Of a stretch of DNA of 64,000 nucleotides, positions 22,374 to 64,000 are shown in pieces; within the stretch, counting starts at the first letter, position 1, and every line of letters starts with the position of its first letter. Origin of the DNA: Hydractinia symbiolongicarpus (taxonomy: Eukaryota > Cnidaria > Hydrozoa > Anthoathecata > Hydractiniidae); the NCBI RefSeq assembly GCF_029227915.1, contig NC_079882.1:22201001-22265000 (forward strand). Direction: 5' to 3'. Made by a program: the position numbers and the translations under genes. The notes below the pieces were generated by a model, which saw only the letters and a program-made list of their open reading frames with translations, was not told the DNA's origin and searched no databases.

Positions 22374-25300
22374 TTATGCGCCGAACTCTGGAGCATCGTC
22401 TTCGGTGAAATCTCCATATCGCCATAAGTTTACCTAAAAAAACAAAACAGTAATGGTTATCTCCTATACGCACTGTACGTAACACTTTAGATTCCAGGTA
22501 AAAAAATCAGGAAACAAAATATGGCAGAAAAGCTCACACTCTAAAAAAAGCAAACTTTGAAAGCAGATAATTTAGCGATGGTAGTTACAGATAAATGCGG
22601 TGGTATATGTGGTGGTATAGATAGGAAAGGGGGTATAGATGAAGGGGATAAAGAAAGGGAATATAAATGGAGAGGGTTTTAACATACATGAATAAATGAA
22701 GTCTACGTAAATATCAATACAAACTTACCCTATTTTTACGAGCTTTTTCTTGGGCAGCAACGTAATCATGGACAAGCTTCTGGAGACGTTTTTCTCTTCT
22801 TTTGTCAAGTAAAACAACACCGTTAGAAAGTAATGTACTTGCCAAATCTTGCTTCGTCTCAGGATTGCTCAAAGTTACAAATTCCTGCCCATTAAACTTA
22901 TACTCCATGTTCAAAGAAAACTCTTTGTTCTAAATAAAAAAAAAAAAAAGTTGAAGAAATTAAATAAAAAAAGCAGACTTTCTCTTCAAAATATGGCAAC
23001 AGTACAAAACGCAAATAACAAACCAGGGCTTCCTTGGCGAATGCATTGCTTAAATCATACATGTTCTCTTCCTAGAAAGGAGAAAGGAAAAAAGAATGAG
23101 TAAGTTTGATGGCCAGGATGGTTTAAATATGTTCGAGTAAACACATTAACAAAACCTGGATCCAATCGAAGATTTAAGTAACATCAAAAATTAGTAAAAA
23201 TAAGTAAAGATCTTACATCCTTAGGTGATTTCAAACATGCTAGACTGTACAAACGCGCTTGAGGTGGAAAACTAAAAATAGAAAACGTTGCAACTTTTAT
23301 CTGACAGCTCTCGAGTGTTTACAAAAAGAAACTTTAAAGAAAATTCTTAACAAACCTAGTGTAAGGTTGTGGTAGATTGGCTAACTTCGTGGAAGATACA
23401 ACTTCACGCTAAAAAAAACAAAACATCAATATTATATAAAAAACATACATCCTCTCAGTTAAACACTTAACAAAGTAGATCCTTACGTTTCCATAGTCAA
23501 CATAAAGAACATGAATCTTTCCATTTTGCTCAATCTTTTCTATTTTAGCACGGTACCTAAAAATAATTGGATGGCATATAAGAGCAAGATATGTTGTGCC
23601 AGATATATAAAAGCAACATATCGAACGTCACCATACCATAAGTTATCAACAAACAAGGATGCAACAAGATCTCCTCTTCTTGGTTTTAACGAACCAGGTA
23701 GTGGTGGACTGTCTGTCATCTCGGTTCTTAATTGTTGCTGCATTTGCTCAAATTGTGCAGCTAAAAAAAATATACGGTTGAATATAAACAACCAATAGGA
23801 TGACTTAAAAATAAGTACCAATAAAATGCACGTTCAAACTTACCATTGTCAATATGTTGTGCCCAAAATTCTACACCGCCAACAATTTCAGTAACAATGA
23901 CCTGAAATAAAGGATTGGATATAGTTTCAACTAAACACTAAAAAGGGAAATCGCAAAACACTTCGTAGTTTAACATCCAGACTACTTTTACTCAATATTT
24001 TTCAGTATTTACCTTTTTGAAATTAGTCTTTCGTTCACTGTCTTCAATCACAACAGCTTCGTGGGTTTCTTCCACATAATCTTTCCATACACCAAGCTTC
24101 TTAGATTTCGCACGTTCTTCAGCTGCTGACAATTCCTTATAATAAGATGTTCTCTCTGCTGTGAAATGTACTTTAGACAAACCTTGTTCAACCAAGGCGA
24201 GAGATAAATTGACATTGTCTACGAAAAGAAAACCAATGAAGTTTCCACCTTTGTCAATGTTTTCCACTTGAAACTCCACCTAAATTACGAAGGATAAGAA
24301 TAGCAATAAAAACACGTCATTCATCATAATCTAATCGAAACATAATATAAAATTGGAATGAAATTTAAGAGAGAATCGCAATATTATTTTAACATTTTAA
24401 CGCAAAACATCATAAACAGTACTATGTTATACACTTACATCACGCTGCATGGTGTGTTCCTTGCTGTAGTCGTATGCTTCTTTGCCCATTAATTCATCTT
24501 CAGATATTTGAGCACCAGCAGGATTAAACGCTTTCATACGTGGGCAGGAAATACCAGCTAATAAGAACGTAAAGAGGCAGCTTTGGCTTGGTACAAAAAA
24601 TCTGAATCTTGAGCCACTTGCAACAAATTCAACAATAGCTTGTGATCTTCCTGCTCGTTGCATGAATGGAAGGTATTGCCTTGATTTGCCAGCATCACCT
24701 GACAAATCAGCAATTCTATGAGCTGGCGGATCTTTTTTGTTGTGGAGGCCTTTGTTGTTTTTGAGAGCTCGACTTTCAGCAGACAGCAATTCATCATAGC
24801 ATGAAGAACGAAGATCATCGTCTGCTCTATGACGAAGACAGGTGGCAAGACCTTTGCTGATTAGCATTTCTGCTATGTTGATTTCACCAACAGTTACAGT
24901 AGCACACTGACGTTCTGGATATCCATCATTAGCTGGCTTCACATAGTCAATATGCACATTAACCTTTTTACCAATTAATTTTTTACGAAGGAATTCACGA
25001 GCCTCAAACATATATGGAATGTCATATAATGGGCGACCCCTTTTTCCATCTCTGGACGGTCCATTCTCTACAACACCATCATCTTTGGGTTGTGCTCTTG
25101 GTGGACGCAGACTACTTAAAAATATCTTTCTGATATCCCCACTAGCTAATTTCACCATAAGGGCATCAGCATTGATGACTTCAGTGACCTAAAACAGATC
25201 ATCGATTTGTTTATAAGTAAGGACGTGCATTAAATACTCAACAGAAGCATCAAAGGTAAAAAGTCTCATACCTTGCCAGTAAATTCATCAATGGATGTCA

Positions 25301-34894: not shown

Positions 34895-36786
34895 ATGGGT
34901 ATTGTTCATGATCAACTGGTTGGAAATTTTTCTGGTTCCAATGGTGTACTTATTGGTCATATAAATATAAATGGACTGCAAAGAAAACTTCATGAAGTTG
35001 GAATTTTATTAAATGAAGTTAACTTTGACATTCTTGCCATAACTGGGACGCATTTATCAACGGAAATAAGTGATTCAGAAATCTCAACAGCAAGGATCGG
35101 AACAACGGCAAAGACCACTGAGGAGATTGTCTAATGTACATTTCCAATGTTTTAAATGTATCAGAATCTTTGGCGATGAAATTGTAAATTTTTTTTTTGA
35201 ATTCATCTGGTTAAATGTTATTGTGAATTCTCAAAAGACATTAGTAGCTTGTATTTATCGACCTCCAAGTGAAAAGAAATTCTTAAATAAATGGGTGCCA
35301 ATATTGGAATCAATGTGTTCAAAACGTAAACACATGGTCTTACTCAAACAAAACTGACAATGTGGTAACTAACAGTTTTGCAAAGCTCTTGTATAATTTT
35401 AATTTAGTGAACTTGATTAAACAACCAACACGTATAACAGATACATCAAGCAGTCTAATACATCTCATTATAACAACGCAACTTTTCAGCAAACCTCATA
35501 TTTGTCTGACTGGATGTTACGATCCATGTATCTCCGACCATCACTTGGTTTATACATCACTTAATTTTAAAAAACCAAAGCGAACACCAAAATTCATCGA
35601 AGTGTCAAAGTGCCTTGATGAATCAAAATTAATAAAAGATTTTGAGAATGTTCCTTGGCAGATTTGTTCTATTTTCGTAATGTCGACGATTCACTTTGGT
35701 GTTGGAAACACCTTTGTAAATCGACTGTAACAAAACATGTAACTTTCAGAAAAGTTAAGGTGAGACAGAATTCAAAACCATGGATAAATGATGAAATACG
35801 AACAGAACTAAACAACAAACACAAGTTGCTTTTAAAAGCTCGTAAAACATCAAAAGGCTCAACAGAATGGAAGGCATATAAGAAGTTGAAGGACAAATGT
35901 ACAAAATGGGAACGTTTCACCTGACCATAGCAATGTATTAACACCATCGATTGTTCGTAGGAGTTGTATGAAAAATCATTTAAAAACAGCGTAAGAAAGT
36001 AAAGCCTTTGGTGCTGATCAGATATCTGCAAAACATTTAAAACTTATTGGACCTCAAAACTGTGGCCTGTATAAAGTAATTAAAGGAAGTATAAACTCAG
36101 TTAAATATCCATCTAGTTGGAAAACAGGGAAAGTAAAATGTTTATTTAAGAAAGGTTCGAAACAAGACTGTGATAATTATCGCCCTGTAACACTGTTAAG
36201 CATCCCTAGTAAGATCTTTGAGAATATGCTTTCAGCTCAAATAGACAATCATCTTAACCAATTCAACCTCATAAGTGAACACCAGTGCGGTTTTCGGCCA
36301 AATAGATCAACAGAATATGCCCTATTACACATGACTAATATATGGCAACAAGCCATTGATCAAGGAAAGATTGTTGCTGCTCTGTTCATCGATTTTAGGA
36401 AAGCATTTGACTGTGTTTCACACGATATCTTGAAAAAGAAATTAATAGCTTCTGGAATTTTAGGAAATATGTATTCTTTGCTTAGTGACTACCTTAGTGA
36501 ACGGAATCAGTTTACAGAGGAAGTGGAGTTTAGAGCACCTCAAGGCAATTGTCACCATCTCCTTTAGCATCTCTGGTTGAAAAACAATCGACCACTTGCT
36601 GTACTTCAAAAAATATGCTCATCAAACAGCCACAATTTAAAATTATTTGATATGAAACATCATTTCGTTATAGAGCCTCGGCATTGTGGAACAAGAAAAG
36701 ACTTGGACAATGAAAGACTTGAAACAATGATATACATAGATCTTGGGGTAAAAAAGAAATTACAGACTCGCTTATCAAATCGATAG
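34895..36786 (+). pseudogene. Internally deleted non-LTR (LINE) retrotransposon
   Basis: Plus-strand fragments in order. The endonuclease begins GHININGLQRKLHEVG with FDILAITGTHLS and continues in other frames (CIYRPPSEKKF; RITDTSSSLIHLI; ISDHHLVY). The reverse-transcriptase fingers and palm carry NYRPVTLLSIPSKIFE, CGFRPNRSTEYALLH and FIDFRKAFDCVSHDIL, breaking off at RAPQGN. A C-terminal tail follows (36577-36786) directly, so the segment that should hold the YxDD catalytic box is missing. Several stops also interrupt the frames. The element is dead and different in sequence from the LINE in SND1. Confidence 0.85.
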
Positions 36787-41620: not shown

Positions 41621-43997
41621 ATGCGAGATTTAAAAGAACAAGATATACGACTCGCATTGGCAGGTGCAAAGAATTGTGGGAAATCTGGTAAGTTGTTGTG
41701 GTAATTTTAAATCCAGAAAAGTTCACACAAGAAATTAATTTTTTGTATCACGAGATTCTACGTATGCCATGTTAGAACAGAGAAGAAAAAATTCTTACAG
41801 TTTTTGAAAAATAAAATGCAAATATATACGACTACACGCTATATATTCACGATAGCAAATCGTGAAAACAAAAAAATGCTTCATTCCAACTATTATTTTT
41901 CCCATGGTGATATTTTTAGATGTTATTTTTAAACTTGCGGTCGTGAAACTTTAAATAGTTCTTACATTTTAGAAATACATACACGCTTTCTCGTTTTCAA
42001 TCCTTTATTTTGATATTTATTTATTTATTTCCTTATTTAATTACTTATTCATTTTGTTACAGTATCCACAAAATTGGTTTGTTAACAACACCCTTTTCAA
42101 AATTAAGGTCCTGGTTTTTCATTCCCTTTCAGTTTTTTCATCGACTGTTCAAAGATAATTAACAAACCGAAAAGTATACACTGAACGTAAGGCGAAAGGG
42201 GGAAACTTTAAAATATCGATGTTTTGGAGAATAAAGGCTTAGACTCGATTACCTTAGATGTACTACTTTGTACGTGGTGATAAAAGGCTTAGACTCGATT
42301 ACCTTAGATGTACTATTTTGTACGTGGTGGTAACTTTGTGCTAAAATTGCTACACAAAGACACAGAGAAAAAAGCTGAATGAAATATGTGAATGAAAAAA
42401 ACAAAAACAAATAGCATTGAATTTGCTAGTAAATATATACAAAAAAAATAAAGTAGGAATGTTTTTATGTGAGTACATGTGATTTACAACATTACAACAT
42501 TAATTTATTTGATTTTAAAGTTTAAAAAAAAGGAAAGGGAGTTGAAATTAAATGACGGGTTGACGTTCGGTGTGTATCTTGCGATTTGTGAGCCAGTAAA
42601 TTCTGGTTTGTTTTATGGATAAATTTCAAAAGCTTCGGGTGATTGCTTAAATTGTCGATTGTTCAAAAAAGATATTAATGTTGTTATAATTTTTTTTTTG
42701 TTTAGCACTAGCAGTTCGATTTTTAACTCGAAGATTTATCGGCGAGTACGATTCGCACAAAGGTATGTCTGAAACCACTCCTCTTCCAGTTCTTTGCATT
42801 CGTTATTTAGATTCGATTCTGTCATAATAGTGCAATTTCGTTCCCAGGGCAGTTTGCCTTTTCAATTAGCATCGTAATAACGGCTCAGGGGCCAAGAGTA
42901 CGAGGATGATAACAGTGAAGTTTTTGTCATTTTTTAAAAAACTGATTAAACGAAATCAATTGTTGAAAACATTGCTTTCGACTACAATTTCTCCTTTTCG
43001 ATATTTAAGAAAAACTTCCCATTTTTATATTTAGACACCACAATCACTCGAAGCATTGAAATTGCCGACCGTGCAATTAATTTGCATCTTAGAGATACAA
43101 CAGGAACGGTATGCTTTACACATAACTACAAGAACAACCTACAAATAATTATTATGGGCTGGAGTTTCTTTCGCGGTGTTAATAGATCATTTAAGAAATT
43201 ATATAGCTCAAACATTTTAACCCACTCCGTTCTAAATTCTAATGCGAAAATTTTTTTTTAGTGATTTGTCACCCATCTTTTCCGTTACGTCATTTTGGAT
43301 ATCCCCTACCAGGAGTCGAAAATTTTTATAAATTCTTAAAATTGAATGTTTTTTTTAGGATTGGATGAAATCTGCTACCAATGTTGTCAACTGGTCTTCT
43401 GCTCTTATTATTGTATACTCCATCACAGACCGTGGAAGTTTCTTAGTAGCCAATCATATTTTAGAAATCATACATAAACTGAAGCCTTTAAACTCTGGTT
43501 GCACCTTGTTACTAGGCAACAAAAATGATTTAAAACATTTAAGACAAGTTGAAAAGAAGGAAGCTAAAAGATTAGCGTTGGATTTCGGTGTGCGTTTTAT
43601 AGAATGTTCTGCGTCAGAATCGTATGATGAAATACATAGTTCCTTTACACGGTTAATTCTAGAGGCGTTACTCGTGCAAAATGCTAAAAGGTTGTCCTTT
43701 GAATCGTCTGAAGACGAGAAATCGAAACCAGCTAAAGAAGTTGTTCGAACACGACGTCGTTCGTCTTCTCAACCGCAACCTCACTATGTTCCTTCGTGTA
43801 ATAAATCTCCTGTTATTGAAGAGAAAAAAGACACTTTTCATCCATTCAAATCTATGGATTTAATTCGAACTCCCAGCCCAGCGGAGCGCCGACGTGAGCA
43901 ACTTCGCGATATGCCACGACAAGCTAGAAAGCAATCATTACGGAGAAAAATATCTGGCATTGGGTCGAGAATAGTGGGCTCGCAAAATACAAGATAG
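41621..43997 (+). CDS. RERG/RASL11-type atypical Ras GTPase, 278 aa
   Basis: Small GTPase, exons 41621-41687, 42706-42762, 43035-43108 and 43359-43997, all phases consistent. A good acceptor at 41573 suggests a noncoding 5' exon. G1 is GAKNCGKS (residues 15-22), followed by VRFLTRRFIGEYD, a stretch typical of RERG and RASL11. The G3 box reads DTTGT (62-66) where Ras has DTAGQ, so the catalytic Gln is absent. G4 is NKND and G5 ECSAS. The C-terminal 100 residues are basic and Ser-rich (RRRSSSQPQ; SPAERRREQL; SLRRKISG) and lack a CaaX box, so membrane attachment would not be by prenylation. RASL11 proteins have a comparable basic tail. Signalling role is unknown; RASL11 versus RERG cannot be settled by eye. 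Confidence 0.88.
42233..42332. repeat. Tandem duplication, 50-bp unit x2
   Basis: Two head-to-tail copies with about two differences, in intron 1 of the Ras-like gene. Each starts AAAGGCTTAGACTCGATTAC. Confidence 0.9.
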
Positions 43998-45469: not shown

Positions 45470-48400
45470 CTAATTGTCTATTTGCTTCCGTTTTCTAAAA
45501 TTTGATGTTCGCTCGAAAATATTCTCCGCCAGGCCGAAAAAATATACCATCTGTGCAATGCCAAAAAGCGGCGCAACTGCTATCATCCGAGGTACTGCAC
45601 CTTTAAAGAAGGCTGGAATACCTTCATTCTTATAGATCTTTATAGCTGCGTCAATAATTCCATTATAGACTGGTTCTCCTTCCATTCGTTTAAGAACTTG
45701 CAGTCTAGTTTTAATGACGTCTAAGGGAGTAACAAGTCCAGAACTAAACATAGCAGAAAACAGACCACATGCCATCGAGTGAAGAGGGTGTGGCTTCTTG
45801 CCATCATCACCATATCCCTAGGGAGAAAAGAACAGTCACAGAAATCTGTATAGCATATTGTACTATTTCACGCAATACTATAAAAAGGGACACGCAATAC
45901 TGGCAGTAATTTATTAGTGAAGTGTTCAACTTGATTGTAAATATTCATGATGAATAAAAATGAATGAATAAATGAATGAATGAATAAACGAATGAATGAA
46001 TGATTAAACATCACGAACAATAAGGAGGCACAAAGAAGAGTACCACTTGTAACAACATACCTTCGAATTAAGAAAAGCGAAAAGTGGAAAATATACGCTT
46101 GAGAACGGTATATCCCTATAAATATTAAAAATATAAATATGTGATGGACAATAATCATATCTAACTGGGTTGTGGTTATTTTCTGCTTGATTAGGTAAAC
46201 CTGATTGGTTAACAAATTTTTATGTTAAGGTCTAGTAGTTTAGTTATACTTTCCACAGAAACGAAATCTATATAGCGAACTGAAAGCATTAACAAGAAAA
46301 TATAATTAAAACCCTACTGAAAAACCTTAGCTACATACATGTCTAAGTTTTGGATATCATGCATGGTAACTGTTTAGAAATTACACAGATACAAGAATAT
46401 AGAATTGTCAGCATTTTAGAACTTGTGTTTCTCCATTGTTTAGGCTGTAAGACATTGTGTGATTTAAAATGTTTTGCTGAAAAAATGGGGATAAAAATCA
46501 AAAACGAACGGTACATTATAAACACTTGGGCTTTAAAAGAGAAAAAAATCTTGCCCATTCGCTTAAGGATTTTGTTTTGTAGCATATTAGGAAGTTATAG
46601 TTTCTTTTACAGTTACAAGAGTTCATAAAAGGCAAACTTGTACTAAAAATATGATATTACCTCGCTAAGGTGGCACCAAGTCCCTTGTATATTCCACCTA
46701 TTCCCTTTTCACGTATCAAATTCATAGCTACTTGTGTTGCACTAACTGACGCTTCCCCTGATGTGTCTGCAAACAAAATTAAAATCATACAAGATGCTTT
46801 TACGTTATCACAACATGTGTATTACATAAGAATCTTTATGAATACTTAAATCACACACTTCTTCCAGCTACTTGCATCTGAATTTTTAAAAACTCCATGG
46901 GCGTGGTCACAGTTACCTATAAAAAAAATCAACAAATATTCGTTTAAAATAGTTAGGCGATAACTACAACATCCATTTTTCACAATTTTTATTACATACC
47001 TGACAAATGCCAGCAATAGCGCCAGCCATTGTTTCATAGTGCAGCGGTAAGAAGGACCTAAAAAGGATGTATCAATTAAATACCAACACATCCCAGGCCT
47101 TTTTTATGATTAAAAAAATTTAAAATCTTAATATGAACAAGTTTTGATTGGTTTGACAATTCTTATTTGGCTTCAAAAAAATTAGACCTTTTACCCCTTT
47201 GTTGCACCAAAGTATTGTCTAGCTTGATCATTTACTGCTAGTTTGATTGCTTTCTCTGGATTGACTAGGACTAAATTAACACCAAGTCCTAAAAGAAAGA
47301 GGTGTCATTTGCATACTCTTTAGCATTTTTTAAGTCTGTAATCCACAAAAGTGTAAGCTGTTGCGACAAAATACAAAAAACAAAAATAGGCACAAAAAAA
47401 GAACCTGTTACCTTTGTATAAACCACGAATGCCTTCAGTTTTGCCAACAACATACATGCAATGAAATCTAACACAAAATTTAAATAACTAAATAATTGAA
47501 AAGTGTTTCCCAAGACGTCACTGTTTTTGTAAACAAAGTCACTTCAATGAATTGTGGTGGTTTTGAAAGTGTACTAGGTTTTTTTAATTCTAGTATTTTG
47601 TTAGTTTTAATAGAAGAAAGATGCAACAGTAAATCTAGAAGAGAATGGTAGAAAGTAGTTAGCATTGAAACAAAAATTTAAAACAATGATAAATATTAAT
47701 CTCATATAGTCAGTGCTGAGGTGAATCTTTAATAAAATACCAGTCTCTGGTTACTTAACCTTTTCATATTTGACATAAAAATATAAAGATAAACCATTAC
47801 CATATTTAGATAAAATTAGGCCACATATTAAGTAAGTCTAAATGCTCATAACTTATAAAAAATAGTATTAATCACATGATTTATGATGTTGATCAAATTA
47901 TTTATGAAATTTTATCTTGTTGCAGTTTTCCTTAATTATTATTCTCTATTTTTTATGTAGTGCAAAAGATTGTGAGGTTTATTAGAGTTTGGGTAATTGA
48001 TTGCAATTACAGTAAGCTTATTACATTCCAGTATTGACGACTTAGTCTCTTCAATTGCTTCTGACGCTTTCCTTATATCTATTTGTAGGGATTGTGAAAT
48101 AGTATGTTAGGAATGTTAGACCATAAACCATTGCAACTGAGGTAACAGGTTCAACAAATAAGGCAATCTTTAAACGATGTATAGTATGTAATATTACTAC
48201 AAAATATTTTTCTTGCCAAAAAAGTACAAAACTTACAAATTTTTGTAAAGTCTTTTCACTACCTGGCCACCAGCTCTGGAAACAGTACGCTGATCCTGCA
48301 GTCTTGTTTTTGCAAGATCCAATGGAAATACACAGCATGTACCAACTGATCCAGCAATAGCGCCATTCAGCAATTTTGCTGAGAAACTAAATAAAAACAA

Positions 48401-52861: not shown

Positions 52862-53603
52862 GTGAGCATATACATATTTTCATTGAGCATGAATCGAAAC
52901 ATCTGATTGTGACGTAGCGGCGGTATCATGACAAAAAATTTCGGTTATTTGTAATGTAATATTTGCATCTGGTTCGCAGAAAAGGCTCAAATTTATAATG
53001 TAATCAACCTTCTCGTAAAATCTTTTGCTTATAAAACAAGATATTGCTAAAGATCACCTGTGAATTTATCAAATTACAAAATTCTCTGTGTCTCATATTC
53101 TCATTACGATTGACATTTCATTATCTGGTACGCATAGTCATATGAAATTAGATTCTCAAGAATTTAAGTGAAAAAATATATAACTATCTTTTTCCTTCTT
53201 TATTTTAGTTAACAAGAAAATTCGAATTATCAAGACAGCGTAAATTCAGAACACTCTAAAGATTATCTCTAAAGGTAAGCTTCTCATTTATGTAGGTATG
53301 GTTTGCTAATTCTTGCTGAATCTGCTGTATCTCATTTTGGGTCATTACAATCGCTTTATTTGAAAATATTAAAATCTTTATTTACCGCAACAAACGAGTT
53401 TAAAAAATTGCCTAGTTCCGTCTTTAATAATCTGTAATTAACTACCCCGCAAAAAAAAGAATTAACAACCTGAGTGACAGTTAATACGTGTGTAGTAATT
53501 GCTATTAATTTTCACATTAATTAGTAACATCCTTTTCAACCGTTATGTCTTTACCGTCTGGTAAATGTATTTATTTATTTATTTTTTTAGTATCACGCTG
53601 AAA

Positions 53604-53939
53604 ATGACCAAATCTTTGATTTTCATCATCGCGATGTTTATAGCTGTGCTTGGTCTTACGCTATGTAGGCCACCACGACGTGTTTTAGTGCTTAAAAAAG
53701 CAATTGAACCAGCATCCAGTGTATTACATACCACTAGCAAAAAGGATAGTTCGGAAGTTATGTTTATATCACCATTACAAACAACTGGGTTCTCAAGTCC
53801 TACAAATAATGAAAGACTTCGTTCGAGACGATCTGCTAAAAATTTTGTCTTTAAATTATGTGTTGCAAAAACAAAGGATCAAAAAAAATGTTTGCGATTT
53901 AAGAAGTTTGGGATGTGGCACCAACCTGACGGCAACTGA
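53604..53939 (+). CDS. Secreted cationic two-cysteine peptide precursor A (novel family)
   Basis: A 111-residue precursor in one coding exon (exon begins 53591). Residues 1-21 form a clear signal peptide (MTKSLIFIIAMFIAVLGLTLC). A roughly 55-residue pro-region with no Cys follows. At RSRR a furin-type cut would release a 34-residue C-terminal peptide reading FKLC, nine residues, CLR-x3-FGMWH and ending DGN. The peptide is strongly basic with exactly two cysteines, so one disulfide loop is expected. There is no C-terminal Gly for amidation. The Met at 53604 was chosen over an upstream in-frame Met (53565) that lies before the splice acceptor. Its partial paralogue is at 63747-64000. Possible roles are peptide hormone, antimicrobial or venom-like peptide; none is shown. 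I recognise no named family. Confidence 0.8.
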   Translation: MTKSLIFIIAMFIAVLGLTLCRPPRRVLVLKKAIEPASSVLHTTSKKDSSEVMFISPLQTTGFSSPTNNERLRSRRSAKNFVFKLCVAKTKDQKKCLRFKKFGMWHQPDGN

Positions 53940-54097
53940 CTCTTTGAGAATTTCAATTTTACTTGATTAGTCTGGAACTAACTGCTGAAAAGTAAAAAGA
54001 AGAAAAAAATGAAAATAAAAATCAAATATGGACTACTTTTAACTTTATATATATGTTAATATTGTTAAAAAAGAAAATTTATATTTGTATATATTGA

Positions 54098-54103
54098 AAT
54101 AAA
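54098..54103 (+). promoter_or_regulatory. Polyadenylation signal AATAAA of peptide gene A
   Basis: Canonical hexamer 159 bases after the stop codon. Confidence 0.6.
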
Positions 54104-54880
54104 TTTACGTTATTTAAATCTACGTTATTTAAAAATCCTTCTTTTTTAATGTTATTTTCTTAATTAAGTAAAAATGGTTGGTTTGTAACCATGGTGGTTA
54201 GGAGTCAAGGTGGTAAAATATATAACTGTGAGATACCCAGACAGTGTTTAAGCTACTCATCCGTAAAGGCTCGTTTCCATTGGACTGCATTCGCGAAAAG
54301 CTCACAAGTTTTTTTGTACGCGCGTGCGACAAAATAAGAGATTTGAGCAAGTTGCATAAAGAAAAAAAAATTTTTTTGCAAGACATATGCAAGTTAAAAC
54401 CCTTGAAAATTCCCTACCATCCTCAGTTCTTTTGAAAAAATTAAACTAAGCTTTTCGGTTTTGCTTTTCACGTTAGGATATATTTTGAAATCCCGATTTA
54501 TTTCTTTGGATGGGGATATATATTTCCTCCATACTGTTTTTTCTTTTCTCCTAAATTTCTTGTCTAATAATATTGTATGGATATTGTACTTTGTGAGGTC
54601 TCAATTCCTAACTCCCTTAAAAAAAATCATAAGTTGGTTTGCTCGCTGAATGATTCAGTATATAAAAAAGAAAGAGTTTAATTATTATCATAAATACATA
54701 GAAATAAAAATAAATGAAAAGATAAGACAAGTAAAAAGACGGAATATTTATCTAAGCTTTTATGTTAAATGAAAATCAACATATAATCTTGCTGGCAATT
54801 AATTTTTTCTAGAACTGTCCTTGTTGTAGATATTGAATAAAAAATTCCATAAAATTGAGTATATGTTCCCTTAGCATTCA

Positions 54881-55131
54881 TAGTGGCCTTGTAGTTACGA
54901 AGTTCGCTTCGCAATCACAAGGTCCGTGGTTCGGTCCACAGCGCAGGCACGTTTAGCAAGTGTCTTTATCACAGCTACGGGTCAATCCATGCCATTTGAG
55001 GGAAAGTGGGTAGGCAGTGCGGCTGTATACTTAATGTATGCATTCAGAACACAGGACCCACGTTATAACAGTGTTTTCAACACTGAAGTGGCTATATCAT
55101 ATATAAATATTCGGAATAATAATAATAATAA
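54881..55131 (+). mobile_element. tRNA-derived SINE
   Basis: The head has an A-box-like TAGTGGCCTTGTAGTTACG and a B box GTGGTTCGGTCCAC at 54926-54939, spaced as in a tRNA promoter. An unrelated body follows and ends in (AAT)n at 55115-55131. It cannot fold as a whole tRNA. The three-part layout is that of a SINE mobilised by a LINE. Confidence 0.7.
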
Positions 55132-56820
55132 CAGGAACATTAGATTCTTTTTTTTTTCTTTACAGTGAAATGTGTCTTTTTTTCCTGTATGATAGAAGAA
55201 CTGGTAACGATACGTTACATATGCTACAAGTTATCAAATCGATACTATATCTCAATAGTGACCGACATGAGAACTCATGTTGGTGAAAAATGATATGAAT
55301 CATACAATATTGCTTTAACGAATGTGAACAAAGCCAATACGAGTGTTGCAATTGAAGTTTTACATCTTGTTAAGATTTTGTGCATATATCACATGCCACT
55401 TACAATTTATATTTCTTAGATACGAAATAAAGAACCTCTCTTTAATTGTTGTTTTTGCAAAATTGATCCAAATAAGTACTCTTTTCAATTTAAACTCTGC
55501 TGACGTGTTTATATTACTTCTCACGACGACGCCTCTTTCAATCATGTACATGTGCACATAGATTGTGAGCGAAGATACATTGTATCATGTTTTGTCAGGA
55601 TAAGCAAATTTTTTATAACGACTTCACTTGTGAAATACAAAACAATAAACTTACGTTATCACTTATAATAACTGTTTCCTTATATATGATTTGATTTCAA
55701 AAATGTTCTCCGCCCATTTTTTTTTCAATTGATCAAAGAAAGGAAGGAAAAACTAACAGGATTTCTTCTGATTTCGAAATGATACAAGAATGTTTGAATA
55801 AGCGAGGTATTTTAGAGACGAACATGTCAGTCATATTATCATCACAAAATTGAAGTTATCTTACAAAATGTTGGCTTTCGCTTTTCGTGTCTCTGTTTAC
55901 ACGAATCATATATCTACATCAAAGTTTAATGATAAAATGTGAAGAAATTTCCTTTGTGTCTCAGACATGGGTCTTTTTTCTTGAAGGAAAAGATTCTTCT
56001 ATGAAATACAATTTCAATTTTATTTCGTGTAAATTGTACATTGCTCCATGGCTGGACATACGAAAGCAAAAGTGGAACAAAGTCGTTTACGACATCAGCA
56101 TTTATTGAAATTTTGGAAAGCAAAAAATGTAATTTAAAGGGCAAGAAGAGCAAAATGATAAAGATGTATATACTTAATAGAAAAGCATAAACAGAGTAAC
56201 GCCCTAAATCACGTGATATTCTTTCTTATTTACCCGCAAATTATTTTTCCCAACTAAGAAAAGAAATTAGACTTTGAGCGTACTCTCCCACTCTCCCTCT
56301 CGAGGTTTTTTAACTATTGTCTAGATTTTTAATCCACATTAAAAATGTCAGGTGAGACAGTTGATCACTGATTTTGTAATCCAAAAAAACTTGATTAAAG
56401 CAATTCATCATAGTCTATTTTTCCATAGGGGAAATCCGAGTTAAAGTTTCATGTTTTATATACAAAACAACACGAAAAAAAGCGGAAATTTGAAAATCCG
56501 TCTAGTTTTAAAATATTTTTATTCAGTTATAAAATTTATTATATACCTTTTTTTGCCAAAGCTTCAAGATCTATAAAATATCTATAAAAGACTGAAAGGA
56601 AAGCCTGACTAACAAATTAAATGACTAAACGAGAAAGCATTTGTCTCATTTATTGCAAACATTTTTTGTTAAGAAGTATTAGAAGTAGATCTTCTTCAAT
56701 TCCACTGATGGACACGAATAGTATGACATCAAAGGTTATATCATCTCTGGATGGTGATAATGATAGTAATGTAACGGTAGAGAACTTAAAATGTGAATAA
56801 TTTTTATTGTTCTTAATGTC
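55132..56820. other. Intergenic, nothing recognised
   Basis: AT-rich; short unrecognised open frames on both strands (for example 55887-56153) look like shadows of each other. Confidence 0.55.
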
Positions 56821-56911
56821 TATATAATGTGCGGAAAAGATATATGGTTATGGAAAAGATATATGGTTGACCATATATGGTTGACCATATATCTTTTCCT
56901 CACATTATATA
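56821..56911. repeat. 91-bp foldback with 28-bp arms
   Basis: Arms 56821-56848 and 56884-56911 are reverse complements with one mismatch; the arm begins TATATAATGTG. The AAAAGATATATGGT part of the left arm is repeated once more in the centre, next to a CCATATATGG palindrome. Confidence 0.85.
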
Positions 56912-59900
56912 TTCTCGAATATTACGTCAATGTCTGTTCTAACAGAAGTAAGGAGGAACCAGAAGAATTCGTATCATTTTAGAACAATAATTACAAAAAA
57001 TTACATCCCAAATCATTATTATCTATTGAGCAACTCAACTATTTTAAAAATGAACAAAATTGTGCCAAGATCGTTAAAAATTTTGGTATTTCCTCAAGCA
57101 CATATCGATTGCAAAGTAACTTTACAGAAACATTATTTGAGCAAATCAGCATGACCTAGCATTTAAAATTAGAAAAGATATTTTTTATCCAGCATATTTT
57201 AGAAAAGGCTCAGAATAGCTGACATAACACACTTCAATCGATTCAGAACAGTGCGAGGAACAACGAACTTCATATTAACATTTTTTAACGTGACTTACAT
57301 TATAATTTGACAATAAAAACATGTAGATTCATTCTTTTTAAAACCAAATTACCAAGGTAGTTTCCAGGTTCATCCAATTGATATTCTAATGTTAAACATA
57401 GTATAGACCACTTTCTGCGTGACGTAGTAGTTTTGATTTTATTTTAAGAACAATGGGCATGCGCGCACTTTTGTGTAGGTAAAAAAGCAGGACTCACGCA
57501 GGGATTGTTATTAATGAAGATTAAAAATTTATTGTGGTAGTGTCAGATCTAAGAGGAACTGGAAATAAATTTTAGTATATTTTTTTAACTCTTTTTAAAA
57601 ATTTCACTACTTTTAAGCGAATATTTCTTCTTTTGGATGGATATCTGTGATTATTGTGGTCTGTTGTTTATATTTTCTACCTACTGAAATGATCGCGCAT
57701 GTGTAAAAAAAACATGATCTTATGAAGACGAACAAAATCTTCGGCTTTGTCCAAGGTATTAAAAAGAGGAAAAATGCTTGATCACAATATGGATTTAGCA
57801 AAAAGGCACTACATGCCATGAAATGCACGACCTTAACTAACTTAAACTAACTTAAATTAACTAAAAGTATCTGTCGAACGTTAACAAATGTTTGCTAAGA
57901 TAGCCAAGAAGCTTTGTTTTGCTTCGCTGCTGCAATGATTATGATGTGCCGAAATCCAATAGCTTTCTCGTTCTGTTGTGAAAAAAAGCTAACCAATCAT
58001 CTGGGGTTATCATTTTTCTACAGTAACCCAACAATTAACAACAGCGGGGGAGATATCGGTAAATAAATAGAGGGGGAGCTGAAAGAAGTATTGGAAATTA
58101 CCAATTGGGCGGAGTTGGGGTGAAGTAATGAGGGAGGACGGGTCTTGAAAAATAGAAAACATGGATATCTCTAGAAAAAGTGCTTGCTTTATTCATTTAG
58201 ATAACATGTGAGCACAATGTAACATTGTTCTTGAAACTTTTCCTCAGACTACTGGCATTCTAATATACTGTTCCAAATTGATTACAGGCAAAGGTGGATT
58301 TACTGCATGTTTTCAAGCATTAAATTCGAGCACCTAACAATAAATTAATATGAACAGTGCAGGGGGGCACAGTCATGGTGGGGATATTATTTGATGCTCT
58401 ATAATAGAAACAGTATGAGAACACAAAGAATCAACGAAATAATATTGAGGGTACTTACTAGCCTCCCTCTACTTTGACTACATTTTAAACAACTCCAAAA
58501 ATGGACACACGACCAATGTAATTTAAAAGCAAGAGTTCCTGTCTCTTCACAAGTTTGGGAAAATAATATTTGGATAATTTAGGCATAGATATACTTCCTT
58601 ATTTTAGTGTATGATATGCATATTGAATTTGTTTCTTGCTTCTAGACTTACGCAAAAATACCAAAAATGTTATCTTGTGTGCTAAATGAATTGAGTTTTT
58701 GACCCTTTTTTGGCGAAAGATTTTGCCTTTACAAATTTCAAAACGCAAAAGTTTTTTCACGCGAAAAATTATTATATTAATACGTATACAATTTCTCCAT
58801 TTTCAGTTTATTATTCTATTACAACTTTAGTCTCTTTCTTTCTCTTTGCTATGTTAAACATTTCTCTAATATCTTTACTTCTGCCAGTACTTGTCGCAGC
58901 ATTCTCCTTTTTTCTATTTTACTCTGAAACAAGTGGAGTGTTCACAACTGTAGGTGAAGTCATTAAAAAATTGAAAAGGTTGCCAACGGGTATGTCTTCT
59001 ACATGCTCAATATAACACGGTAAAAGAATTTAAATTGTTATGTGATAGCAAAATTCAGCGGTACATTTGTGAAGATGAAGAAACTGATGACGGAACTGAT
59101 TCGGAGTGGAAAGTTAAATAAATTTTTTTACTTTAAACAAAGCAAAAAAAATAATAAAAATTGAGAAAAAAATCCTATTTTTTTATCATTAGCGAAAGTT
59201 TTTTTACGCGAAAATAACCTTTTTCTTTGATTTGCGAAAGTTTTTCCCACGAAATTTGTTCAAAACACCACAAAACGTGAAAATTTATTCCATAAATTTT
59301 GCGTTTTTTTATACGCAAAATCTTCTTTCTCATATTAAAGTAGTAGTTTACCTGATTATATGTTACATGAAGGTTTTAGGTACTAAATAAATAGATAAGG
59401 TCTTAAGACTTGAAATATTGCCTAACAAGGGTGGGTGTTACTAGATTTGTTATGGTGCGCTACAAGGAGTAGGGGTGGTGAACAATGGCGAATTTGGGTG
59501 TTACATAATAAAATGACAGTAGCTGGCTAGATATCACAGATGATAAAGCTAACTGCATTCTAAGTTCCGAGTGTGGTTGCATTTTTACGTCATTTATTAG
59601 AAAACCACGTACCATGTACCTATGCAACGAAACCCGAAAACTCACTTTTATTGTCGCTCGTCGGGTTATTTTCGTAGTTTTTACTAAGAGTTTTATGTAA
59701 AGGAAACACTAATTAGTGAACTTTCCTTCCCAACAAAAACTGACTTTGCGTGTTAATACTCATAATCCTATAAGACTGATGTAATTATTTATTTTCAATA
59801 GAATGATTAAGCAACATTTTTAAGTCTCGATTCTCGCGGATTATTTCGTGGGAAGTGAATATAATTTAAAAAATTCTGATTGGCTTACGAAGCAAACTGC

Positions 59901-59955
59901 CCCAGTAAAAGTAGATATTTCCACCAGCCAACAGAAGTTCAAGATCATTTCGTTC
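56912..59955. other. Intergenic, transposon-like debris, no gene recognised
   Basis: About 58690-59330 contains repeated GCGAAAGTTTTTTCACGCGAAA-type motifs at both ends, typical of a miniature element. The open frame inside (58710-59015) is hydrophobic and not recognised. The rest shows nothing. Confidence 0.5.
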
Positions 59956-61966
59956 TGTTGTGCCCCAAATTGTAATATTTACCCCATTTTGTAATACCTG
60001 CCTCAATTTGTAATACCTCCCTCAATTTGTAATAACACCTGCCCCAATTTGTAATAATAGAGTTGCCCCAATTTGTAATTATTCAAAGCTGCCTCAATTT
60101 GTAATAACACCTTGCCCCAATTTGAATAACATGAAAAATACCATAATAACTTTCCTGCAGTTTTAGCTCGCCGAATTGACAGGACACACTATCTACTAAG
60201 AATTTTTTATTAATCTAGCACAAGCGCTGTCACGGGTATAATAACGGAAAAAATGGTTGAAAGAACAAACCAAAGTTTCTTTTTCTTTTAAAAAATTAAA
60301 TATACCAAAATATATTCAAAAGTAAAAATGTTCAATCAATTTGATAAGCAAGATTGCGTACCATACATACGTTAAGGGTTGCAACGGCTTGATCCCATTT
60401 TAACCATCTTCAATTAAATTTTTGGAACCTTTCCGCTATCATCTCCCTCATCAACCAATCTATTTTCATCAAACACCTCTTCGCTAACATCTCCCTCATC
60501 AACCAATTCACTTTCATCGAACACCTCTCCTCCACTATCAATTGCCTCCCCTAATATTTCATTCCATAAGGTGACATAATGAATACCTTGTCCCTCCGCA
60601 AAATGTCCCAGTGTGATATCACCTCGTGGGTTGGGATTCATTAAGCGAATTACGGTGAATGCGTCTCTCCCTAATGTAGAAACAACTCTTACATTGACAT
60701 CATATATATCTGCACAAGCACGAAGTGTTAGCTCGTTACCATATACCCCATTTATAGCCATGTTTTGAATGTATTCGGAACAAGAAACTTCTACGTAAAG
60801 TTCTATTGGCCAGCCGTCTACGTTAACGTCATTAATCCGTAGGTGATTGATAACATCTTTTCTAACATCTTTTGGTTAAAAATAAATGCTATATTCTTGT
60901 AGTGCATAGAATATAGGTAAAAAATAACTATTTCCATCAAAGCGGATTATAAGAAACGTAAAACCCTCAGTCGGACAGGCTTTGCAATATATCTTCCTGC
61001 GCGAGAGGAATGAGAAAAATTTTACAACGCTGGTACCTTTATGTACCTTTTTCTTTTTCTTTGACATTTTTTTCATATTATTTTTCAAATTATAGTCAGA
61101 AATGTCTTCAACGTAGAATTCTATCACACATGACTTTTTGTGACCGGGTAGAGTTATTGAAATATCATACTCTCGATTCTACTATGCTTTTTCAAAACTT
61201 TTCCAGGAATAACATGTTCGGTACTTTATCATTTTTCTTGCTTCCGATACGTAAGAAAATCTCTATCGCCAATCTTGTACTTCTTGTAGACATTTTTTGG
61301 AGCCCTGAGTATTTGATTAGTTTTTCTCTTGCTACATTCACGTGCGATTTCACGAAGGTGTTTGATTTATCATTCTTTTATTGATATCTTTTGCAGATGG
61401 TCAATTAGAACGTCCTATTGATATTGTTAGGTTTTTCATGGAAACACCAGCCTTGACAAGTTTGTTAGATTTTCTTTCTAAATATACTTCAAAGGCAGCA
61501 CTTCATCCCAATTCCACACGCGTTTCATTATTTAAACACCGCATTTTTTACCCAATAATGTTAAAGATATCAAGATAGGAAAGAACAAAAGTATCTTCAA
61601 CAGTAATGTTGTTGTTTACACCAAAGTCATTCATTCACTAACACATCAAACATTGCGACGCAACCTGGTTTTTATGCATTGCGATCCTATTTCTTTCCGT
61701 TAATATCAGTCGTTGCAAAGATGAAAAGAATAAACTAAAGTTACATGAAAAATTAAATGTTTATTTTCCGAATGGCCCTGTGCCAAGGTTGCAAGTTTCT
61801 TTTCTCTTCCTAAGTTTTACAATGGATTCTCCAAATTAAATATTTTCGAGAAAAGAAATTATTTCAAATTGGGGAAGGTGTCATAACGAATTGCGGCAGC
61901 TTTGAATTATTACAAATTGGGGCAAGCGTTATTACAAATTGGGGCAGGTATTACAAATTCGGAACA
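59956..61966. mobile_element. Ginger-like DNA transposon relic with CCCCAATTTGTAATA subterminal repeats
   Basis: The left 170 bp hold about seven copies of (G)CCCCAATTTGTAATA; the right 100 bp hold about four in reverse orientation. Reading inward, both ends start TGTT (59956; complement of 61966), which suits the TGT..ACA ends of Ginger elements. The minus-strand interior has a short integrase-tail-like stretch (KYKIGDRDFL, near 61270) and then a broken OTU-domain frame. From memory, OTU domains accompany integrase-type transposases in some Ginger elements. No clean target duplication was found, so boundaries and class are tentative. Confidence 0.5.
60414..61127 (-). pseudogene. OTU-domain (deubiquitinase-like) pseudogene with lost catalytic Cys
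   Basis: One reading frame with an internal TAA (60878-60876). Upstream of it is RFDGNSYFLPIFYALQEY, matching the OTU motif DGNC-F but with Ser in place of the catalytic Cys (codon 60929-60927). Downstream the frame continues RKDVINHLR, NELTLRACADIYDVNV and the His motif GHFAEGQGIHYVTL, which is typical of OTU. A tail repeats EVFDE-x2-LVDEGD twice. The stop and the Cys change make it inactive as a protease. It belongs to the transposon at 59956-61966. Confidence 0.75.
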
Positions 61967-63681
61967 GGTTCGGAATATGTTGCCCAGTGCAGATAATGAA
62001 ACGCTTCTTTGAAAAAATTTTGAGGTTATAAAAAAAATAACTCCAAGGACACGTACACCACCGCAATGTAAGATCATGTTTATATTTTCTTTATGATTGA
62101 TAAAGTTATCAAATTTGCTAGCAACGGTATTGTTGCTTAGATCGTCGCAGTATACTAAAATAGAATCGAATAAAATGTTTACGCAAATAACTATAGCTGT
62201 AATTACAGAACTGCCCTAAAACTCCGCCTGTTTAAAGGTTGTCTTTAGAAGGGTGGGAAAGAAGGATGGCTAATAGCCATGAAGTCTTGGATACGACATT
62301 TGTTTTTATTGTCTGATAATTGAGGAGCAGCAGTCAATATTTGCAGTCATAATTGTCAAGAAAATGTTATACAATAGTCATAATAGTCGACTGTAGTAGA
62401 AACACGAAAGTTTTAGAGATAGAAAATTTCCTCTGTGTAATTGTTGCACTGCGTTCACCGAGTTTTATAGGAAAAAAAGCTAACCTTTTTAATAAATTCG
62501 ATGAACGTTGTTTTTCAAAGCAAATAGCTACACGTCTTTCTAATTTTGCATTGTGTTATAATCGTGCTGGTTAATGCAAGGTTTTACGACTTCTGACAAG
62601 TAACGATGTAGAAAAACATGAAAGAAAAATGATTGATTAAAGCATTTTCTAAGTGTTTTTCAACTATTGTAATCAGCTTCTCCAGACTTCAGCCGTGATT
62701 GGTGGCTGATGACAAGAACTAGCGGTTTATATACCAACCCAACTCATCCTATTTCTAAAACAAGGGGAACATTTTTCATGACAATCACGTTTTCAGGAGT
62801 TACAGAAGTTCAACCGTGGGATTGTTTGCCCGCCTTTGCTCGGATATTTGCGTTTCCCGTCCTTTAGGGTTAATTTAAGACTTAATTATGTATTTTTGCG
62901 TACATTTAGATTTTATATTCGTTAGGGTTACTTCACATGTTTTAAAATTTAGTGTTGTCAAACTTTTTTAAAAAATTGATCCATTGCTTTCAACTTCCAC
63001 AGATATATACATATATACAAGGAGTTATACAAAGAAAATCAAGGGCCTCAATATGATAACTGTCAGCAAAAATCTGAAAATCATGAAACAGAACCACATA
63101 TATTTTTTAAATTACGCAAGCCTCATTGATGGCAAGCACACCAAACCATTTGAAAGCGGCTTTCGCAAAGAGTTAGCTAATTTCTGACATGTTAAAATAA
63201 CAGTTATATCAGTGAGCAAAAGAAACAAAGTCGCTTTGTGAAATGACCATTGTAATAACTAACAAAATTTACTGCAACATGCATTCTCCTTATACGTTTT
63301 TGAGGTACGGTGAATGGAACTATCCATAAAACTTTTAAGTGAATCATCGAAGTCATTCTTGTCTAGATTAAATCGTTTTCTCGTGCCAAAAAAAAGGACA
63401 GACATTTTTTAGTATTACTGTTTTTAAAATAGAAACCTTGCCAGTTGGAGATCTCCTTTGGCACACAGCAAACAGAATAACGTAATGAAATAAATTAATG
63501 ACGATGATTTTATATTAGCACAAAATGGTGATAAAAACTAACTACAAGTATATACACCTAAATAAATATAATAATATAATATACAATTTATCCTTTTTAC
63601 ATAATTTCATTTTTGTTTTATATTTTTTGTCTATTTCGTGTCTTTTTTTCGATCATATATATGTGACTTTTTGTGATCCCA
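61967..63681. other. Intergenic, nothing recognised
   Basis: AT-rich spacer between the transposon relic and peptide gene B; only short unrecognised frames. I looked for a third copy of the FGMWH coding motif and did not see one. Confidence 0.55.
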
Positions 63682-63687
63682 TTTATT
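63682..63687 (-). promoter_or_regulatory. Polyadenylation signal AATAAA of peptide gene B
   Basis: Minus-strand AATAAA about 60 bases after the stop codon. Confidence 0.55.
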
Positions 63688-63746
63688 GGTTCGTTCAGCG
63701 TTTTCAGAATTTCTAACCATAGTATAAACTTTCTTAGTAGAGTCGT

Positions 63747-64000
63747 TCAAACGTTACCATCTCCTGAATAGTGCCACATTCCAAATCTTCGAACACGTAG
63801 ACATCTTCTGCGATTTCTACTTCGTAAAATACAAAGTTTGAAGAATCGGTTGCCAGTTGAGCGCCTTGTACGCGATTTACCAGATAATCTAAAGCGAATT
63901 TGTTTTAAAATAATAGCAGGCTTGGAATTTTTGACTTCGTTTGATTCTCCATTTGTGAGTATAGCCACCCTGTTTCCAACTTGCGTTCTGAACACAACAG
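63747..64000 (-). CDS. Secreted cationic two-cysteine peptide precursor B, partial at right edge
   Basis: Open frame from the window edge to a TGA at 63749-63747. It is the paralogue of precursor A. After RTRR comes a 36-residue peptide with FKLC, nine residues, CLR-x3-FGMWH and an end reading GDGNV. A uses mainly Lys where B uses Arg, so charge positions are kept while residues change. The pro-region (GESNEVKNSKPAIILKQ) has little similarity to A. No ATG is present in frame, so the signal peptide and 5' exons lie beyond base 64000. The gene converges on A, with stops 9.8 kb apart. Confidence 0.78.
   Translation of the reverse strand, partial: VVFRTQVGNRVAILTNGESNEVKNSKPAIILKQIRFRLSGKSRTRRSTGNRFFKLCILRSRNRRRCLRVRRFGMWHYSGDGNV

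What the first reader, a model, noticed from the sequence alone, without database searches (positions are those of the whole stretch)
53604..64000. Pair of paralogous secreted peptide precursors defining an apparently new two-cysteine FGMWH family
Precursor A (53604-53939, plus) and partial precursor B (63747-64000, minus) share R-S/T-R-R-S, FKLC, exactly nine residues, CLR, three residues and FGMWH, then DGN near the end. A has a clear signal peptide; B's is off the edge. Outside the mature peptide they are barely alike, so selection appears to act on the released C-terminus. I know no named hormone, antimicrobial or venom family with this signature. C-x9-C loops recall MCH-like or hairpin antimicrobial peptides only superficially.
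Basis: partly seen in the sequence, partly recalled or inferred. Interest (0 to 1): 0.9.

Follow-up and report, generated by a model that had tools for sequence, protein, structure and literature searches.

The report
Two-copy family of secreted disulfide peptides
Two neighbouring genes in what is probably a hydroid genome encode small secreted proteins that likely release a positively charged two-cysteine peptide matching no named family we could search, and what it does is unknown.

Summary
A (53604-53939, +) is a complete 111-residue precursor. B (63747 to the window edge, -) is its paralogue; all of B was recovered from the assembly (109 aa, own signal-like N-terminus). Both have a hydrophobic N-terminus, basic propeptide, R-S/T-R-R site and a cationic 35-37-residue C-terminal peptide, FKLC-x9-CLR-x3-FGMWH...DGN. 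They are true paralogues (E 3e-13 genome-wide) and the only members found in the 481-Mb assembly. Conserved residues show many synonymous codon changes. Unnamed orthologues of each exist (88% and about 85% identical); the mature peptide is significantly more conserved than the prepro part for B (p=0.010), not for A (p=0.75). No named relative was found. Best reading: a furin-released, single-disulfide, non-amidated signalling peptide; an antimicrobial peptide is the main rival. Secretion, expression, cleavage, disulfide, structure and function are unshown. The host is probably Hydractinia symbiolongicarpus, from assembly statistics only. New sequence family, ordinary architecture.

The parts
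53604..53939 (+). Precursor A, 111 aa, complete open frame including stop
   Evidence: orthologue P0003 88% identical over 100% of the query
53604..53666 (+). Predicted signal peptide of A, residues 1-21 (cleavage after TLC inferred)
   Evidence: Hydrophobic run, best 11-residue Kyte-Doolittle mean 3.37; helix with block pLDDT 76-78; no signal-peptide program was available
53667..53831 (+). Propeptide of A, residues 22-76, ending in the furin-type site RSRR (53820-53831)
   Evidence: sequence; net charge +7 including the site
53832..53936 (+). Predicted mature peptide A, 35 residues, Cys at 53859-53861 and 53889-53891, FGMWH at 53907-53921
   Evidence: net charge +7
53571..53590 (+). Possible 3' splice (or spliced-leader) acceptor: pyrimidine-rich tract ending in AG, 13 bases before the ATG of A
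   Evidence: sequence only; inference, not tested; I see no equally clear site before B
54098..54103 (+). AATAAA downstream of A
   Evidence: sequence only
63747..64000 (-). Precursor B, in-window part; the whole gene (109 aa plus stop) is G000:C8:22264747-22265076, 76 bases beyond the window
   Evidence: orthologue P0005
63861..63872 (-). Furin-type site RTRR of B
   Evidence: sequence
63750..63860 (-). Predicted mature peptide B, 37 residues, Cys at 63831-63833 and 63801-63803, FGMWH at 63771-63785
   Evidence: net charge +9
63682..63687 (-). AATAAA downstream of B
   Evidence: sequence only

Best explanation
A and B are paralogous genes, one peptide per precursor, for a secreted signalling peptide. 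Inferred steps: the signal peptide takes the precursor into the secretory pathway; a furin-like convertase cuts after RSRR/RTRR; the only two cysteines of the mature peptide close a nine-residue basic loop; and the invariant tail FGMWH, almost free of charge, is the receptor-contacting part. No glycine stands where amidation would need it, so the C-terminus stays free. Inferred: secretion, cleavage, disulfide, ligand role.
For: Hydrophobic N-terminus, R-x-R-R site and C-terminal peptide in both paralogues and both orthologues. Only A and B found by two full-length protein queries, one mature-region query and two DNA patterns in 481 Mb. Of 35 aligned codons 8 are identical, 9 synonymous, 18 non-synonymous; dN 0.41, dS not computable, read as saturated: an old pair with a kept core. 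Against the orthologues the core from F to FGMWH has 0/26 changes in A and 1/25 in B, against 10/76 and 15/72 in the prepro parts. A fixed, nearly uncharged FGMWH fits a binding epitope better than a charge-driven membrane action (inference). A bioactive non-amidated peptide is reported in Hydra and a cyclic one predicted in Clytia (passages of PMC12440616, and PMC8638164).
Against: No transcript, peptide or receptor evidence. The conservation contrast is significant only for B (p=0.010), not for A (p=0.75) and not for either core (p about 0.06). The site is R-x-R-R, not the G(K)R/GKK sites by which cnidarian neuropeptides were mined, and the peptide is strongly basic (+7 to +9), which also suits an antimicrobial peptide. 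The two structure predictions disagree and are poor.
Confidence: 0.45

Rival explanations
1. A host-defence (antimicrobial) peptide: a cationic single-disulfide loop, secreted and furin-activated, that acts on bacterial membranes; the lysine-to-arginine exchange between A and B keeps the charge.
For: Net charge +7 (A) and +9 (B and both orthologues) in 35-37 residues; 6 of 8 lysines of mature A are arginine in B. One low-confidence model gives a beta-hairpin with the cysteines on facing strands.
Against: Hydra AMPs are described as mostly having a bipartite charge distribution and complex cysteine patterns, and as many clustered paralogues (passages of PMC10945409); here the propeptide is basic too (+7, +11), there is one cysteine pair, and two copies were found. 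The fixed FGMWH tail needs another reason.
Confidence: 0.27
2. A second cut at the conserved dibasic pair (KK in A, RR in B) directly before FGMWH releases a short linear peptide FGMWH...DGN(V), the cysteine loop being a separate product or a spacer.
For: The pair is kept as KK or RR in all four sequences, immediately before the longest invariant stretch.
Against: All four loop lysines of A are arginine in B as well, so the pair may be kept for charge alone; LC and CLR are also invariant in all four; no amidation signal.
Confidence: 0.12
3. A nematocyst or gland-cell secreted effector peptide (venom-like).
For: Small basic disulfide-bearing secreted peptides are common in cnidarian venoms (recalled).
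Against: One cysteine pair, two copies, conserved core against the orthologues; no significant Pfam or PDB match.
Confidence: 0.08
4. Pseudogenes or unexpressed frames.
For: No expression data here; the library type of the contigs behind P0003 and P0005 is unknown.
Against: Four intact frames, in the host and in at least one relative, with synonymous drift at conserved residues.
Confidence: 0.05

Closest known systems
Hydrozoan amidated neuropeptide preprohormones (X1PRX2amide, GRFamide, GLWamide; PMC8638164)
   Same: Signal peptide, propeptide, basic cleavage sites, probable hydrozoan host
   Different: One peptide per precursor, no GR/GKR/GKK string, no amidation glycine, a cysteine pair. 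The published script needs at least three such sites (methods section), so it would not see these genes; the authors also ran TBLASTN with known precursors
Clytia GPPCRWGCamide (predicted cyclic) and Hydra non-amidated LW-peptide (PMC8638164, PMC12440616; passages)
   Same: Cyclic or non-amidated hydrozoan peptides
   Different: No sequence resemblance to FKLC-x9-CLR-x3-FGMWH that I can see; the Clytia peptide is an octapeptide among several peptides of one precursor
Hydra AMPs: periculin, arminin (PMC10945409; passages)
   Same: Small secreted products of paralogous genes
   Different: Bipartite charge, complex cysteine pattern, clusters of up to 28 (periculin) or 9 (arminin) paralogues; not so here
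MCH, elevenin and beta-hairpin AMPs such as arenicin (all recalled, none fetched)
   Same: Single-disulfide loop
   Different: Recalled spacing C-x8-C for MCH and elevenin against C-x9-C here; no Pfam match for A at E<=10

Membership tests
Cnidarian amidated neuropeptide preprohormones | Several peptide copies with GR/GKR/GKK amidation sites | tested here: not met
   None of these strings in P0001 or P0004, read by eye; one peptide per precursor
Cnidarian amidated neuropeptide preprohormones | Signal peptide | tested here: met
   Hydrophobic N-terminus in A and B; by hydropathy only, no signal-peptide program
Hydra-type AMP families (periculin/arminin) | Bipartite charge distribution in the precursor | tested here: not met
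   Propeptide net +7 (A), +11 (B), +5 and +8 in the orthologues, furin site included; mature part +7 to +9
Hydra-type AMP families (periculin/arminin) | Many clustered paralogues | tested here: not met
   Two copies in the assembly; no other in the window plus 50 kb of flank
Hydra-type AMP families (periculin/arminin) | Antibacterial activity | not testable with these tools
   needs an assay
Beta-hairpin AMPs | Disulfide-stapled two-stranded hairpin | tested here: inconclusive
   Strands 82-88 and 94-100 in a model of mean pLDDT 47; two helices in a model of the mature peptide of mean pLDDT 65
Any Pfam-A family | Match to the family profile | tested here: not met
   No family over its cut-off for A and B's fragment (E<=10) or for full B, P0003, P0005 (E<=0.1); weak chance matches of B's fragment to DUF2428 (E=0.091) and of P0003 to Proton_antipo_C (E=0.096)
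Furin-processed secreted peptide precursors (general kind) | Signal peptide, R-x-[KR]-R site, conserved C-terminal product | tested here: met
   RSRR or RTRR in A, B and both orthologues; cleavage and secretion themselves untested

The most novel reading that the evidence does not exclude
An unrecognised hydrozoan peptide-hormone family: furin-released, disulfide-cyclised, non-amidated ligands with an FGMWH tail, outside the amidated repertoire and invisible to a miner that counts amidation sites.
Probability: 0.35. Interest if true: 0.6.

Novelty: new member of a known kind. Interest (0 to 1): 0.42.

Why it matters
The hydrozoan-wide peptide screen whose methods I read (PMC8638164) counts repeated amidation sites, so a two-copy, furin-type, one-peptide family would be a class it cannot see. 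If the host is Hydractinia, where gene knock-down is established (title of PMC7393174), its role can be tested directly. If it is an antimicrobial peptide instead, it would be a compact one without the bipartite charge described for Hydra.

Tried and rejected
Chance resemblance: rejected. Larger family in the host: rejected within the limits of the search. B as query at E<=10 added three weak places (E 0.54, 0.54, 2.1), not followed further. The pattern for CLR-x3-FG[ML]WH with up to 2 mismatches gave 13 places against 4 for its reversed control; only A and B have no mismatch, and the other 11, translated, show no such peptide. The exact FGMWH DNA pattern gave 6 places against 4 for the control; besides A and B they lie in unrelated frames, three of them variants of one repeat-like frame. 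Window plus 50 kb of flank held no further copy; the 2e-9 hit L008-127 is B's own 5' end. Copies split by introns within the motif could be missed.

Homologues in other hydrozoans: not testable here. Protein searches gave only P0003 and P0005 (11 and 440 candidates); a third, with B's mature region, found nothing (P0005 is over its length limit). A scan of viral contigs matched 121 stretches, none confirmed. Genome and metagenome collections were not scanned.

Structure: two AlphaFold runs, four and two sequences deep, disagree; no fold search was made on them. PDB sequence searches gave only chance rows (E=1, E>=3.2) or none. YN00 failed, so only NG86 stands.

Literature: FGMWH occurs in one listed paper, an unrelated public-health text. 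Listings 12, 31, 39, 54, 60, 72, 80 and 107 showed no description of this peptide in titles or abstract starts. Supplements were not available (cap 0, not tried), so a supplementary table could hold it. Passages of PMC9545775 and PMC9449814 were seen and added nothing.

Species: a pattern test for the KPPGLW repeats reported for H. symbiolongicarpus (PMC8638164 section 8) did not complete. The search for COX1 found only a non-cnidarian-code mitochondrial contig, which speaks against a cnidarian host unless it is a contaminant; the 500-N gap after it and zero PF00379 matches favour that, but the tool warns that nothing rang in its controls either. ARAGORN found no tRNA in those stretches, which I could not interpret.

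Full report
What is there. Precursor A occupies window 53604-53939 on the plus strand: 111 residues, a hydrophobic N-terminus, a 55-residue basic propeptide ending RLRSRR, and a 35-residue C-terminal peptide with two cysteines. Precursor B runs from 63747 to the window edge on the minus strand. Fetching the assembly beyond the edge gave the whole of B: 109 residues, its own hydrophobic N-terminus, a 52-residue propeptide ending KSRTRR and a 37-residue C-terminal peptide. The genes point at each other, about 10 kb apart; between them lies a small element with inverted repeats at its ends (59.96-61.96 kb).

Is it real. A and B match with E=1e-8 pairwise, 1.0e-12 and 2.9e-13 across the assembly, and far above shuffles. 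In the 35 codons aligned from just before the cleavage site to FGMWH, 17 residues are identical and 9 of these use different codons; dN is 0.41 and dS could not be computed, which I read as saturation. This is an old duplication whose key residues have been kept; the estimate rests on 35 codons.

How many. Two full-length queries, one mature-region query and two DNA patterns over the 480.9-Mb assembly returned only A and B as members (other pattern places translated). Copies split by introns inside the short motif could be missed.

Relatives. In 5.8 billion predicted proteins A finds P0003 (88% identical), and the profile of A, P0003 and B adds P0005, an orthologue of B (93 of 109 aligned columns identical, from the counts) with a longer open frame upstream. 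Both are unnamed contigs of one source; whether they come from one species is unknown. In the host, the frame upstream of B has a stop before the start codon, so the start at MVNT is the likely one. Changes between host and orthologue: A, 10/76 in prepro and 3/35 in the mature part (Fisher p=0.75), 0/26 in the core from F to FGMWH (p=0.061, core chosen after the fact); B, 15/72 and 1/37 (p=0.010), core 1/25 (p=0.062). Conservation of the released peptide is thus supported for B and only suggested for A. A second conserved block, TLCRP-x2-R-x2-V, lies where the signal peptide ends.

Mechanism. Most likely: secretion, furin-type cut, closure of the Cys-x9-Cys loop, receptor binding through the constant FGMWH tail; all four steps are inferred. 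The charge of the loop is kept while lysine in A becomes arginine in B at 6 of 8 places; the arginine of CLR is the only basic residue of the mature peptide that is the same in all four sequences. A KK/RR pair just before FGMWH leaves open a second cut that would free a short linear peptide. An antimicrobial role is the main rival because of the charge, but the basic propeptide, the single cysteine pair and the two-copy status differ from Hydra AMP families as described in PMC10945409 (passages). Structure prediction does not decide: hairpin at mean pLDDT 47, two helices at 65.

Known or new. No significant match in Pfam-A, NCBIfam (which covers bacteria and archaea) or PDB sequences. One hydrozoan screen required three or more GR/GKR/GKK sites, complemented by TBLASTN with known precursors (PMC8638164 methods section), and its script would miss these genes. 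A newer pipeline with modified parameters covered Hydra, Nematostella and Clytia (passages of PMC12440616); whether it would catch such genes I cannot tell. FGMWH is not in the searched papers apart from one unrelated text. As a sequence family it looks new; as a kind (secreted, convertase-released, two-cysteine peptide) it is ordinary.

Host. G000 has 480.9 Mb in 76 contigs and C8 is 33.08 Mb. The H. symbiolongicarpus assembly HSymV2.0 has 482.9 Mb in 84 sequences, N50 33.3 Mb at L50 7, scaffolded with 3D-DNA (passages of PMC10411563). These fit, but the window's GC (32.7%) is below that genome's mean (35.85%), and no diagnostic nuclear sequence was tested. Against it stands mitochondrial DNA at the start of C2 whose COX1 reads sensibly with the invertebrate code (AGA=Ser, ATA=Met), not the coelenterate one; from recall it looks arthropod. 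A 500-N gap separates it from the chromosome and no arthropod cuticle domain is found in the assembly (no positive control), so I take it for a mis-joined contaminant, possibly food.

Noticed in passing
G000:C2, about 9.9-39.9 kb (L036, L037, L039, L040): Mitochondrial DNA in tandem (shift 15.84 kb; per-kb identity 92-99.5% over 10-24 kb) whose COX1 reads sensibly with the invertebrate code, not the coelenterate one; a 500-N gap follows at 39,940. Probably a contaminant or food contig mis-joined to a chromosome.
   Followed up: partly
window 59961-61962: Element with inverted repeats of AATTTGTAATA-type units at both ends and a small open frame (60414-60761, minus) that looks like the end of an OTU protease (recalled; Pfam gives only a sub-threshold YunG match, E=0.078).
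   Followed up: partly
window 24427-25158 (minus): Exon(s) of the staphylococcal-nuclease-domain protein SND1 (PF00565; PDB 3bdl E=1.1e-86).
   Followed up: partly
window 43365-43997 (plus) and 45470-45775 (minus): Ras-family GTPase piece (PF00071) and mitochondrial carrier piece (PF00153).
   Followed up: no
window 36226-36567 (plus): Reverse-transcriptase fragment (PF00078).
   Followed up: no
window 53571-53590: Pyrimidine-rich tract and AG 13 bases before the start codon of A, a candidate cis- or trans-splice acceptor.
   Followed up: no
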